Both the position numbers and the translations under genes were made by a program. Positions 24,861 through 28,932 of a stretch of DNA of 64,000 nucleotides are shown one piece after another. Below the pieces are notes generated by a model. The model was not told where the DNA came from, did not search any database, and saw nothing but the letters and a program-made list of their open reading frames with translations. Location: assembly GCF_000156355.1 (NCBI RefSeq), contig NZ_GG657898.1, forward strand, positions 1-64,000, in the 5' to 3' direction. Each line of letters starts with the position of its first letter. Position 1 is the first letter of the stretch. This stretch comes from Methylophaga thiooxydans DMS010 (GTDB taxonomy: Bacteria; Pseudomonadota; Gammaproteobacteria; Nitrosococcales; Methylophagaceae).

Positions 24861-26327
24861 ATGGCTATTTCTTTTGATACGATTCCTGAAAAATTACGTC
24901 TACCGTTTACAGCCATTGAGTTCAGTAATCGGTTGGCAGGTAATGCCAATATTGATTTTAAAATGCTGGTTATCGGTCAGCGACTGTCAACCGGCACGAT
25001 TCCAGCGGGGCAAGCAGTTCGTGCCAATAGCCCTGAAGAATTGGAAGCGTATTTTGGTCGAGGCTCTATGTTGGCTGAAATGGGCAAGGCACAAATCAAT
25101 GCCGATCAGTTTACTGAAAAGTGGTTCTTGGCTTTAGATGATGCATCAGGCGGTGAACAAGCAACCGGGTCAATCACCGTTACTGGCCCGGCCACGCGAG
25201 GAGGCACAGTCTTTCTTTACATCGCAGGCTATCGCTTACTCATTGGTGTTGACGCTGCTGACACGGATGAAGATATTGCCAGCGCTATCGTTGCAGCCAT
25301 TACGGCAGAGACGACCTTACCGGTAACAGCCGAAGTTAATGGTGCAGAGTCGACTGAGGTCGATATCACTTGTAAGTGGAAAGGTGAAACCGGCAACGAT
25401 ATTGATATGCGACTCAATTTCTACGATGAAGCCTTGCCTGATGGTGTCGGCCTCACCTTTGTGGCCATGTCTGGCGGTACCGGTAATCCTGATCTTACTG
25501 ATGTGTTCACTGCTATTGGTGATGAATGGTACAACTGGCTTGCAGTGCCTTATACCGATACAGCCAACTTAGTGGTGCTAGAAGCCGAAGCAGAAAGTCG
25601 CTGGGGGCCAATGCGTGCCATCGGCTTTCGGGCATTTACTGCGTTTAAAGGCACCCACTCAGAAACCGGGACTTTTGGCAGTGGACGAAATGGCCCACAC
25701 GTCACCTGCATGGGTACCAATGACTCACCGACTCCGCCTTATCTATGGGCTGGCGTCAATTGTGTTGTCGCTGCCGCTTCCTTGCAAATTGACCCGGCAC
25801 GTCAGCTAAGAACGCTGGCATTGCCTGGTATTAAGCCACCGAAAAAAGAACTGCGTTGGGATGGTACCGAGCGTAATCAGCTGCTGTTCGATGGTATTGC
25901 TACTTACAGTGTTGATCGTGGTGGATTGGTACGAATTGAACGTCAAATCAGTATGTATCAAACCAATGCGTCCGGCTTTGCTGATGACAGTTATCTCAAC
26001 ATCAACACGGCAGAAACATTAGAACGCATCCGCTTTGAGCAACGGGCAATGGTGTCTCAAAAATTCCCGCGTCACAAGCTGGCGGATGATGATTTTGATA
26101 TTCCAGCCGGTCAGGCGGTGGTGACGCCTAATGCCATGGAAGATGAGTTTTTAGCCTTGTATACCGTCTTTATGGATCGCGGCTGGTGCCAGGATTATGA
26201 AGGTTATAAAGCCACAATCATCGCTGAAATTCATGATGACGATCCAGACCGTCTGGATATGTATGACTCACCAAAACTCATCAATAACCTACGTGTCACG
26301 GCTGTGCACACTGAATATCGTCGTTAA
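24861..26327 (+). CDS. Contractile tail sheath protein (Mu gpL-like)
   Basis: This 488-aa protein has the tail-sheath pattern of the Mu gpL family, with the N-terminal FDTIPEKLRLPF segment and a C-terminal handshake/sheath domain (NNLRVTAVHTEYRR). It polymerises around the tube and contracts on infection, indicating a myovirus. SD not unusual. Confidence 0.94.
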   Translation: MAISFDTIPEKLRLPFTAIEFSNRLAGNANIDFKMLVIGQRLSTGTIPAGQAVRANSPEELEAYFGRGSMLAEMGKAQINADQFTEKWFLALDDASGGEQATGSITVTGPATRGGTVFLYIAGYRLLIGVDAADTDEDIASAIVAAITAETTLPVTAEVNGAESTEVDITCKWKGETGNDIDMRLNFYDEALPDGVGLTFVAMSGGTGNPDLTDVFTAIGDEWYNWLAVPYTDTANLVVLEAEAESRWGPMRAIGFRAFTAFKGTHSETGTFGSGRNGPHVTCMGTNDSPTPPYLWAGVNCVVAAASLQIDPARQLRTLALPGIKPPKKELRWDGTERNQLLFDGIATYSVDRGGLVRIERQISMYQTNASGFADDSYLNINTAETLERIRFEQRAMVSQKFPRHKLADDDFDIPAGQAVVTPNAMEDEFLALYTVFMDRGWCQDYEGYKATIIAEIHDDDPDRLDMYDSPKLINNLRVTAVHTEYRR

Positions 26328-26342: not shown

Positions 26343-26693
26343 ATGAGCGAACAAGTCACAGGAAAAGTAAAAGTCAGAATTGACGGCGGTGTTATTGAGT
26401 CAGAAAACGAAGCCACGTTAGATCCGGGTGGTGTTTCAAGAGAACCGTCGAGCCATGGTGGCAAAACCTATTTCACCGAATCAGATTCACCACCGAACCT
26501 GAAGTTTAAAATCCTGCTCACGTCAACGGTTGACGTGACAGAGGTGAATAAGTGGAAAAACAAAACCGTCACGTTTATCACTGATACCGGCCAACGTTAT
26601 TTAATGCGTAACGCCTTCACTGTGAATGTGATTGAGCATGGCATGACCAGTGCGGATGTCGAGATGTCAGGCGATATGGCGGAGAAGGTATAA
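26343..26693 (+). CDS. Tail tube protein (Mu gpM-like)
   Basis: The 116-aa protein fits the Mu tail-tube family: VKVRIDGGVIESENEATLDP, the GKTYFTESDSPPNLKF loop and a C-terminal EHGMTSADVEMSG. It has TAGGAGTAAGCA upstream. It forms the inner conduit of the contractile tail. Confidence 0.92.
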   Translation: MSEQVTGKVKVRIDGGVIESENEATLDPGGVSREPSSHGGKTYFTESDSPPNLKFKILLTSTVDVTEVNKWKNKTVTFITDTGQRYLMRNAFTVNVIEHGMTSADVEMSGDMAEKV

Positions 26694-26697
26694 ACGC

Positions 26698-27078
26698 ATG
26701 GCCACGATAACAATTTCACTCGAACACGGCGTCAAAATGGGCGATAAAACCCACACTACAGTCTTGCTGCGAGAGTTAACCCCTGGAGACATCATTGATG
26801 CGGGGCTAGCGTCTGAACGTGTCACGGCATCAGATGATGGCTATGTGTTTGCTGTCAGTCCGACATTGATGGGGCTTCATACCTTGGCGAAGCAGATTGA
26901 ATCTATTGGTGATTATGACGGCATTGTTGATATTGATGACCTGCGTAAATTTCACCGTGAAGATTTTGAGCTGCTTCAGTTTCATGCAGAACGATTAGAC
27001 CAGGCAGTGCTGGAGTCTGTCATGCAGCGGGGGAAGCATGATGCGTCTGGCGGAGAACCTGAACTGGCAGACGATTAA
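26698..27078 (+). CDS. Tail assembly chaperone (Mu gp41-like)
   Basis: The 126-aa protein is read from ATG 26698; an in-frame extension upstream to 26650 lies inside the tube gene. It has ATITISLEHGVKMG, TVLLRELTPGDIIDA and DLRKFHREDFELLQ, the tail-assembly chaperone pattern. By analogy with the G/GT system it wraps the tape measure during tail assembly. A G5 run at 27029-27033 near its 3' end allows a frameshift product (next entry). Confidence 0.9.
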   Translation: MATITISLEHGVKMGDKTHTTVLLRELTPGDIIDAGLASERVTASDDGYVFAVSPTLMGLHTLAKQIESIGDYDGIVDIDDLRKFHREDFELLQFHAERLDQAVLESVMQRGKHDASGGEPELADD

Positions 27079-27163
27079 GTTCAGCCAGTACAGCCAGACG
27101 CCTCTTAACTACACATTAAATAGACCTTTAAGACTCTTTTATACGCAGCTAATGAAACGATGA
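26698..27163 (+). CDS. Frameshifted tail assembly chaperone (gp41-gp42 type, -2 frameshift)
   Basis: In the frame -2/+1 to gp41, an open frame runs through MRLAENLNWQTIKFSQYSQT and stops at 27161-27163, overlapping the tape-measure start as ATGA. At CGG GGG AAG (27028-27036) a tRNA on GGG 27031-27033 can re-pair with GGG at 27029-27031, a -2 slip. Mu is known to use a -2 slip at a G-rich site here, whereas most phages use -1. The fusion would be about 154 aa. The RLAENLNW motif is what these extensions usually carry. Confidence 0.8.
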
Positions 27164-28932
27164 GCCAAAACGACTTAACAACCAGCATCAACATCAACGC
27201 CGGAGGTAACTTCGGCCGCCAGATGCGTGTTAATGAAGACCGTTGGAAACGCTTTAGCAAAACAGGCCAACGTCAAATGGGCGTGTTGCGTAGAAGTGTC
27301 AGCAGCTTTGGTAACGGGCTTGATAAGTTAGGCAATCGTTACACCGCACTATTGACCGGTGCCGCTGGTGCCGGAACAGCCAAGTTTTTAGTCTCGCTTG
27401 AGCGTCGCTTCACTCGGCTAGGCATTCAAGCCAATATCGGTGCTGAAGCAATCGATGAACTGAAAAAGAAAATCTATGAAACGGCACAATCACCCGACAT
27501 CAGAGTTGACCCAAGTCAAATCACCAGCGCGATTGAATCTATTGTCGAGAAAACCGGTGACCTGGACTTTGCTGAAGCCAATATCCGCAACATTGGTTTA
27601 GCCATCCAGGCAACCGGTGCAGAAGGCACATCGATTGGTGAAGTGCTAGGTGAGTTCCAGAAAATGGGCATCGTCTTGGAAAAAGACGTGCTTACGGCAC
27701 TCGACACACTCAATGTGCAAGGTAAAGAAGGCGCGTTCACCTTGCAAAATATTGCGGCATTAGGCCCTCGTGTTGTCACCGCTTACACCTCGATGGGGCG
27801 GCAAGGTATTCCTGCTATTCGTGAGATGGGTGCGGCATTGCAGGTTATCCGTCAGGGTACCGGCTCATCAGAGATGGCAGCGACGGCTTTTGAAGCCTTA
27901 ATGCGGACACTGAGTGATGCTAAGAAAATAGACATGCTCAAAAGCGGCGGCATCAAAATATTTGATGCTGAAGCTTTAAGTCGTGGCGAAGAAGTGTTGC
28001 GACCAATCAATGAAATCATGGTCGACATTATCAAAAAAACACAAGGCAAAAAAACACTGTTAAGCACCGTGTTTGATGCAGAAGCCATGCGTGCATTCAA
28101 TTCTTCCACTGCCGAGTTCCAGCGCACTGGTGGGCTGGAAAGCTTAGATAAATTCATGAATGTCCACGCTGATGGCACCACCACATTAGAAGACTCGACC
28201 AGAGCAGCAAATGATGCCGCAGGCGCTATGCGAAACCTCTACACTGCCTGGCAACAATTTGCTGACTCAAACCTGACTACCTACATTCAATCATTGGCGG
28301 ACACGATCAATGACATTGATAAAGAAACACTGGATATGCTCATCAAAGGTGCAGCAGGTCTGGTTGCAGTCGGTGGCACAGCTATCCTAGCGAGGAAACT
28401 CTATAAAGGTGGCAAGGGTATCTCCGACTTTGTTAAAGGCAGCAAAGCTAAATCCGCCATGGGTGGTGCACTAGGCGGGATGGATGGGGTAACGCCTGTT
28501 TATGTTGTCAATATGCGCGGCGGCATGGATCCAACGGGTATGGATCCAAAAAAGAAACCAAAAGTAAAAAAACCTAATCGTAGGCAAATGCTTAGAGCAG
28601 CGCCAAATATGAAAACAATAGCAGCGATGGGTGCCGGAGCGATGGGTACTGCTGGTTTAGCAGTTGGCGCTGCTGGTTTGGCAGGTTACGGAGCCGGTAA
28701 GGTTATTTATGATAATGCATTAGAAGGCACTGAGTTTGCTGACGCATTAGGCCGTTCGATTGCTAAAGCCTTGGCTTTGTTTGGTAATGATAATGCTCAG
28801 GCCGCATTAAGTGCGGAAAAACGCAGCCAACTGCAAATTGAAGTCACCGATAAGCGTGTCCAGGTCAAAAATATCCAAAGCGATGACATGGATATTAATG
28901 TCGATACTGGCCCTACAGTGGGGAATCTGTAA
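27160..28932 (+). CDS. Tail tape measure protein
   Basis: This 590-aa protein is of the phage tail tape-measure type: an N-terminal ~70-residue helical part, a TMP repeat-like central core (~75-380) with QATGAEGTSIGEVLGEFQKM, a membrane-prone stretch (GAAGLVAVGGTAILARKL, ~370-388), and Gly/Ala-rich segments near 490-520. It sets tail length and helps DNA ejection. It is short for the type, so the tail is probably short. It follows the chaperone frame with ATGA coupling. Confidence 0.93.
   Translation: MSQNDLTTSININAGGNFGRQMRVNEDRWKRFSKTGQRQMGVLRRSVSSFGNGLDKLGNRYTALLTGAAGAGTAKFLVSLERRFTRLGIQANIGAEAIDELKKKIYETAQSPDIRVDPSQITSAIESIVEKTGDLDFAEANIRNIGLAIQATGAEGTSIGEVLGEFQKMGIVLEKDVLTALDTLNVQGKEGAFTLQNIAALGPRVVTAYTSMGRQGIPAIREMGAALQVIRQGTGSSEMAATAFEALMRTLSDAKKIDMLKSGGIKIFDAEALSRGEEVLRPINEIMVDIIKKTQGKKTLLSTVFDAEAMRAFNSSTAEFQRTGGLESLDKFMNVHADGTTTLEDSTRAANDAAGAMRNLYTAWQQFADSNLTTYIQSLADTINDIDKETLDMLIKGAAGLVAVGGTAILARKLYKGGKGISDFVKGSKAKSAMGGALGGMDGVTPVYVVNMRGGMDPTGMDPKKKPKVKKPNRRQMLRAAPNMKTIAAMGAGAMGTAGLAVGAAGLAGYGAGKVIYDNALEGTEFADALGRSIAKALALFGNDNAQAALSAEKRSQLQIEVTDKRVQVKNIQSDDMDINVDTGPTVGNL

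What the first reader, a model, noticed from the sequence alone, without database searches (positions are those of the whole stretch)
27022..27163. Probable -2 programmed ribosomal frameshift in the tail-assembly chaperone
A second frame opens at the end of the gp41-like gene, carries a RLAENLNW-type segment and stops in an ATGA overlap with the tape measure, so it is clearly coding. The only way to join it to gp41 is a -2 (or +1) shift at the G5 run 27029-27033, where a GGG codon can re-pair two bases back. This matches the unusual -2 slip known in Mu.
Basis: partly seen in the sequence, partly recalled or inferred. Interest (0 to 1): 0.7.

Follow-up and report, generated by a model that had tools for sequence, protein, structure and literature searches.

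The report
Two-base backward ribosome slip signal
A Mu-like prophage makes a longer version of its tail-building helper protein by letting some ribosomes slip two bases back on a run of five Gs; this is the trick known from phage Mu, but here, as in most of Mu's relatives, the slip site is framed by a conserved upstream ribosome-binding-like sequence and a downstream RNA stem-loop that I could not detect in Mu itself.

Summary
A gp41-type tail assembly chaperone (26698-27078) is followed by an overlapping frame (27032-27163) whose TGA overlaps the ATG of the tape measure. The frames can be joined at the G5 run 27029-27033 (CGG GGG). The -2 programmed frameshift reading is well supported. Mu's annotated "verified -2" site is CGG GGG CGA at the same aligned codons. 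Ninety of 103 distinct relatives keep the G run there, and 83 read NGG GGG CGA. The extension is homologous in close relatives and evolves as protein. Conservation of the two upstream Gs, which only a -2 slip needs, argues against +1. New here: in 44 dereplicated loci the site sits between a Shine-Dalgarno-like element 12-16 nt upstream (33/44) and a stem-loop whose 5' arm most often starts 6 nt after the A-site codon; mean folding z there is -2.5, against about -0.3 upstream in gp41. The window has both, with a stem z of -4.4 to -5.8. Mu shows neither clearly. The window is odd in having AAG instead of the near-invariant CGA. Function is inferred; no protein data exist. Verdict: a Mu-type -2 frameshift with a dnaX-like tripartite signal, a new variant of a known kind.

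The parts
26698..27078 (+). gp41-like tail assembly chaperone, 0-frame product (126 aa)
   Evidence: PF23746 Gp41_Mu E=3.4e-39, PF10109 Phage_TAC_7 E=3.5e-7; phrog_508 tail assembly chaperone E=7e-33; lies between tail tube (26343-26693) and tape measure
27012..27015 (+). Shine-Dalgarno-like GGAG, starting 16 nt upstream of the CGG codon (candidate 5' stimulator)
   Evidence: Anti-SD duplex about -5.9 kcal/mol in the window; such motifs lie at -17..-12 in 33 of 44 dereplicated relatives against 0-8 in other equal windows
27029..27033 (+). G5 slippery run; P-site codon GGG 27031-27033 re-pairs with GGG 27029-27031
   Evidence: Sequence; same aligned codons as Mu CGG GGG CGA; 88 of 103 distinct loci have Arg codon NGG followed by GGG, plus TGG GGG in L028 and GGG GGG in L119
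27034..27036 (+). 0-frame A-site codon AAG; nearly all relatives have CGA here
   Evidence: 83 of 88 G5 sites are NGGGGGCGA, 4 are CGGGGGGAG, the window alone is CGGGGGAAG
27043..27101 (+). Downstream branched stem-loop; 9-bp outer stem 27043-27051 with 27093-27101, inner hairpin about 27063-27089; starts 6 nt after the A-site codon (candidate 3' stimulator)
   Evidence: MFE -30.6 kcal/mol, z -4.4, -4.8, -5.8; shared with L019 with two compensatory double changes, 27050-27094 G-C to A-U and 27065-27087 U-A to C-G
27032..27163 (+). -2-frame C-terminal extension (43 aa, GSMMRLAENLNWQTIKFSQYSQTPLNYTLNRPLRLFYTQLMKR) and stop
   Evidence: Homologous extension in close relatives; 53% identical to L019; no Pfam or PHROG match on its own
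27160..28932 (+). tape measure protein, ATG overlapping the extension's TGA
   Evidence: Position and length; the gene at this place is annotated tape measure in Mu and other relatives

Best explanation
This is the tail-assembly-chaperone recoding signal of a Mu-like transposable prophage. Most ribosomes read gp41 to its stop at 27078. A minority pause with peptidyl-tRNA-Gly on GGG 27031-27033, held between an internal Shine-Dalgarno-like sequence (27012-27015) and a stem-loop starting 6 nt past the A-site codon. They slip two bases back onto GGG 27029-27031, take GGA as the next codon and make a gp41-extension fusion of about 155 residues. By analogy with lambda gpG/gpGT, the abundant gp41 would coat the tape measure and the rare fusion would recruit the tail tube protein. 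Shown: the sequence parts, their conservation, coding of the extension, excess RNA structure and SD-like motifs at fixed positions. Inferred: that the slip occurs in this phage, its size, its efficiency, the stimulatory role of the two flanking elements, and the role of the fusion.
For: Same aligned codons as Mu's annotated verified -2 site. NGG GGG in 88 of 103 distinct loci; GGG is 19% of Gly codons and CGG+AGG 22% of Arg codons in the same genes. The first base varies (CGG, AGG, and TGG in L028), so the Gs and not the Arg codon are kept. Extension homologous, third-position bias 276/150/91. Folding z peaks at -2.52 in the 75 nt directly after the A-site codon (26 of 44 below -2), while windows further upstream in gp41 lie between 0 and -0.7. 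18 of 19 testable loci fold more stably than synonymous recodings, z -2 to -6. Exact complementary 7-mers start at +9 in 12 of 44 loci, against 0-2 at most other positions outside the stem region. SD-like motif at -17..-12 in 33 of 44 against 0-8 elsewhere; Glu codons there are 34 GAG to 2 GAA, elsewhere 224 to 247. 5' Shine-Dalgarno plus 3' stem-loop stimulators are known for dnaX and IS elements (PMC5009743).
Against: No protein or ribosome data for this phage. The window lacks the otherwise near-invariant CGA codon. In the window the P-site tRNA could also re-pair at +1 (GGA), and only GCC and UCC tRNA-Gly were found in the host. Internal ATGs at 27038 and 27041 lie 4 and 7 nt after a G-rich run and could be started from. 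Formal covariation counts are modest (2-3 pairs with double changes per group), and the loci share ancestry.
Confidence: 0.82

Rival explanations
1. +1 frameshift at GGG_A: tRNA-Gly(UCC) moves forward from GGG 27031-33 to GGA 27032-34, giving the same extension with one glycine less.
For: In the window +1 gives a perfect re-pairing (GGA), unlike in nearly all relatives. The 30 best of 39 host tRNA hits include tRNA-Gly GCC and UCC but no CCC; most of the rest are 80+ nt long, as Leu/Ser/Tyr tRNAs are.
Against: In 83 of 88 relatives the next base is C, so +1 would put the tRNA on GGC with a wobble mismatch. A +1 slip does not need the two Gs of the preceding codon, yet they are kept in 88 of 103 distinct loci against 22% expected for Arg codons. 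An SD element this far upstream and a close 3' stem are the known layout for backward slips such as dnaX (PMC5009743; spacing from general knowledge). Mu is annotated as -2.
Confidence: 0.09
2. The second frame is a separate small protein started internally at ATG 27038 or 27041, with the G run acting as a Shine-Dalgarno sequence.
For: ATGs lie 4 and 7 nt after GGGGG in the window; 16 of 44 relatives have some start codon at extension codons 3-5. D108 is annotated with a separate gene 41.5 here.
Against: 28 of 44 relatives have no ATG/GTG/TTG there, Mu among them, while the G5 run and its codon phase are kept. In Marinomonas L050 one G is missing and gp41 reads straight into the extension. The stem-loop would bury the start region.
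Confidence: 0.05
3. Transcriptional slippage: RNA polymerase drops one G in the G5 run, so that a share of mRNAs encode the fusion in frame.
For: G4 versions exist in nature with the extension in frame (L050, and L143 with a later frame break).
Against: Five Gs is short; bacterial cases in the review are on runs of 9 A or T (PMC5009743). It does not explain the SD-like element, the stem at fixed distance from the A-site codon, or the conserved CGA.
Confidence: 0.03

Closest known systems
Phage Mu gp41/gp41' -2 programmed frameshift (Xu, Hendrix and Duda 2004, PMID 15469818)
   Same: Homologous protein, same gene position, same NGG GGG slip codons in the same phase, extension in the same frame
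   Different: Mu has CGA in the A site and shows neither the upstream SD-like motif nor a significant stem directly after the site (z -0.3); the window has AAG, the SD-like motif and a strong stem
Lambda gpG/gpGT and P2-type -1 frameshifts in tail assembly chaperones
   Same: Same place in the tail cassette and presumably same function, a minor C-terminally extended chaperone (PMC5009743)
   Different: Those slip one base back; here -1 leads to a stop after 2 codons
E. coli dnaX and IS-element -1 frameshift cassettes
   Same: 5' internal Shine-Dalgarno, slippery run, 3' stem-loop; IS911 uses a three-way junction (PMC5009743), and the window's predicted stem is also branched
   Different: Unrelated genes; step of one base, not two; different slippery runs

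Membership tests
Gp41_Mu tail assembly chaperone (PF23746) | Profile match above the curated cut-off (27 bits) | tested here: met
   133.7 bits over positions 1-107 of 107
Gp41_Mu tail assembly chaperone (PF23746) | Gene order sheath, tube, gp41, tape measure | tested here: met
   Pfam sheath and tube matches; same order in Mu and other relatives
Mu-type -2 programmed frameshift | Run of Gs allowing GGG to re-pair with GGG two bases back, near the end of gp41 | tested here: met
   27028-27033 CGG GGG; conserved in relatives
Mu-type -2 programmed frameshift | Conserved coding extension in the -2 frame reaching the tape measure start | tested here: met
Mu-type -2 programmed frameshift | CGA as 0-frame A-site codon (trait of nearly all relatives, not shown to be required) | tested here: not met
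   Window has AAG; 4 other loci have GAG. A recurrent trait, not a defining one
Mu-type -2 programmed frameshift | Fusion protein made, junction shows a -2 step | not testable with these tools
   Needs mass spectrometry or a reporter
dnaX-like tripartite frameshift signal (works like, not a member) | SD-like element roughly 10 nt 5' of the slip and stem-loop about 5-6 nt 3' of it | tested here: met
   Position-specific enrichment of both in 44 loci; spacing compared from general knowledge of dnaX
dnaX-like tripartite frameshift signal (works like, not a member) | Elements stimulate slipping | not testable with these tools
   Needs mutants in a reporter

The most novel reading that the evidence does not exclude
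The two-base backward slip of Mu's relatives is driven by a complete, conserved three-part signal (internal Shine-Dalgarno, G5 with a slow CGA codon, stem-loop 6 nt after the A site), the layout known for one-base slips. Mu, the studied case, has a reduced signal. The family also contains members that switched to -1 (L131, and distant relatives L077-L083) or fused the frames (L050), so it is a natural series for asking what sets the size of a ribosomal slip.
Probability: 0.6. Interest if true: 0.6.

Novelty: new variant of a known kind. Interest (0 to 1): 0.5.

Why it matters
Few -2 programmed frameshifts are known; a 2016 review names Mu as the phage case (PMC5009743), a 2014 paper calls it exceptional (PMC4378225), and a 2024 prediction tool leaves -2 out (PMC10885494). 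If the conserved flanking elements found here are real stimulators, the -2 slip is widespread in Mu-like phages, can be predicted from sequence, and offers a bacterial system for testing why some ribosomes slip two bases and not one. In most of the relatives looked at, the records annotate gp41 without the extension.

Tried and rejected
Profile scans of the extension alone gave no Pfam or PHROG match for the window. A 9-sequence alignment was too divergent for pattern searches and was replaced by closer groups. I first read L020 (CGG GGA GAG) as a GAG-to-GAG slip; GGA re-pairing on GGG two bases back is simpler and gives the same frame. Mu itself does not show the downstream stem (z 0.0, -0.3). 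RNAalifold on the Vibrio/Shewanella group gave only a weak consensus because inner stems differ; the outer stem is kept with few double changes. Rfam found nothing above its gathering score. Xu et al. 2004 is not in the library, so whether it mentions stimulators is unknown. The window's GGGGGAA resembles a -1 motif in other phages (PMC10885494), but its codon phase differs and the -1 frame stops after 2 codons.

Full report
What was checked. gp41-like ORF 26698-27078 matches PF23746 Gp41_Mu (E=3.4e-39) and lies after a tail sheath (24861-26327) and tail tube (26343-26693, both Pfam matches) and before the tape measure (27160-28932). The second frame, +1/-2 relative to gp41, is open from 27032 to a TGA at 27161-27163 that overlaps the tape-measure ATG. 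A 43-codon open frame is not by itself improbable, so the weight rests on comparison.

Comparison with Mu. Mu's sequence at the end of gp41 is CAA GAA CGG GGG CGA. In a protein alignment of nine gp41s the Arg-Gly pair coded by CGG GGG is invariant, and the window's CGG GGG is that pair. The -2 extensions of Mu and of the window both end at or just before the tape measure and share a proline-leucine/aromatic motif near the C-terminus.

Relatives. Searches of phage records, viral contigs and genomes gave 103 distinct loci. In 88 the site is an Arg codon NGG followed by GGG: 83 NGGGGGCGA (75 CGG, 8 AGG), 4 CGGGGGGAG and the window's CGGGGGAAG. Two more keep the run without the Arg codon: L028 TGG GGG CGA and L119 GGG GGG CGA. 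L125 and L135 have one G fewer (AAG/GAG GGG CGA). L020, from the same host genus as the window, has CGG GGA GAG, where a GGA-reading tRNA could re-pair on GGG. L050 (Marinomonas) has four Gs, and gp41 runs straight into an intact extension; this is either a natural fusion or a draft-sequence error. L131 (CGG GGA AAG) has its extension in the -1 frame, with the canonical G_GGA_AAG, and the distant relatives L077-L083 also have -1-frame extensions. The family thus contains -2, -1 and fused solutions.

Why -2 rather than +1. A +1 slip from GGG needs only the base after it; a -2 slip needs the two bases before it to be G. In the 88 loci that share the Arg-Gly pair with G5 the Arg codon is CGG or AGG, although CGG+AGG make up 22% of Arg codons, and GGG 19% of Gly codons, in the same genes (44 dereplicated loci). 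The loci without G5 are listed above, so this is not an artefact of selecting for the run: close relatives that lack it number only a handful. The first base of that codon is free (C, A, T). In 83 of 88 sites the next base is C, which would make +1 re-pairing poor. In the window the next base is A, so +1 is locally possible, and the 30 best of 39 host tRNA hits include tRNA-Gly GCC and UCC but no CCC. I therefore keep +1 as a rival for this phage.

The extension is coding. Across 27 pairs of relatives, substitutions beyond the gp41 stop fall on codon positions 1/2/3 of the -2 frame 150/91/276 times. Start codons at the place of the window's ATGs are missing in 28 of 44 loci, so internal initiation is not the common mechanism.

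New: a downstream stem-loop. The 87 nt after the window's slip site fold at -30.6 kcal/mol, z -4.4, none of 200 shuffles as stable. The nearest relative L019 forms the same branched fold, with double changes at 27050-27094 (G-C to A-U) and 27065-27087 (U-A to C-G). Over 44 loci the mean z of 75-nt windows is -2.52 for the window that begins directly after the A-site codon, with 26 of 44 below -2. Windows upstream in gp41 lie between 0 and -0.7 up to 30 nt before the site. Overlapping windows near the site are intermediate, and windows beyond it rise to zero or above. Where the gp41 stop is close enough to test, 18 of 19 loci fold more stably than synonymous recodings of the extension; the exception, L060, has a damaged extension. 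Exact Watson-Crick complementary 7-mers start at position +9 from the A-site codon in 12 of 44 loci, against 0-2 at most other positions sampled outside the stem region, and the 7-mers differ between groups. In predicted folds the first pair is most often 5 or 6 nt after the A-site codon (21 of 44). Formal covariation counts within two groups are positive but small: 2 and 3 pairs with double changes, above the shuffle means and clearly above slid controls in percent paired.

New: an upstream Shine-Dalgarno-like element. AGGA/GGAG/GAGG starts at -17 to -12 from the NGG codon in 33 of 44 loci, against 0-8 in other 6-nt windows of gp41. Mean anti-SD pairing is -6.15 kcal/mol at -16 against a background of -0.55 (sd 0.71). 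Glu codons at this place are 34 GAG and 2 GAA, elsewhere 224 and 247, so the nucleotides and not only the residues are selected. The window's GGAG is at 27012-27015. 27 of 44 loci have both the SD-like element and a predicted stem of at least 6 bp starting near the site. Mu has neither by these measures.

Interpretation. SD-like element, slippery run and 3' stem-loop form the layout known from dnaX and many IS elements for -1 slips (PMC5009743). I infer that here the same layout drives a two-base backward slip of peptidyl-tRNA-Gly. The near-invariant CGA could add a slow A-site codon, since CGA is read by inosine wobble (general knowledge). The window's AAG departs from this, and its strong stem may compensate; that is speculation. 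The function of the fusion is taken from lambda gpG/gpGT (PMC5009743).

Literature. The review PMC5009743 lists Mu as a case of -2 frameshifting; PMC4378225 calls it exceptional; PMC2628397 found no slip site in KS10; PMC10885494 left -2 out of its predictor. I found no description of stimulators for the Mu-type site in the held library, but the original paper could not be read, so priority is unproven.

Limits. The loci share ancestry and were found by homology, so counts are not independent events. Folding z-scores depend on the shuffle model, which is why a synonymous null was added. The 44 dereplicated loci were drawn from those that have the G5 run. No experiment on this phage was available.

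Noticed in passing
window 1-about 37770 (contig G000:C10) and contigs C1, C4, C5, C8, C12, C13 (two), C15, C16, C20, C24: The host genome assembly holds 12 copies of gp41 identical in protein, 11 left ends and 14 right-end matches of the Mu-like prophage (about 37.8 kb). Several contigs begin exactly at a phage end, so either the strain carries a dozen near-identical copies or the assembly copied the repeat to contig ends.
   Followed up: partly
L131 and L077-L083, L029: Relatives of gp41 whose extension lies in the -1 frame; in L131 behind a canonical G_GGA_AAG. The direction of the frameshift has changed within one protein family.
   Followed up: partly
L050 near the CGGGGCGA site (Marinomonas rhodophyticola); L143: Four Gs instead of five put the extension in frame with gp41; L050 is intact, L143 breaks later. 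Natural fusion or sequencing error.
   Followed up: no
Mu relatives such as L015, L134, L144, about 30-115 nt after the slip site: A strong structure further downstream than in the other groups (z -5 to -6 in the window starting 30 nt later; in Mu -2.7), cause unknown.
   Followed up: no
GQ357916.1 24019-24165 (D108 gene 41.5): Annotated as a separate gene in the extension frame, starting inside gp41; probably a piece of the -2 fusion.
   Followed up: no
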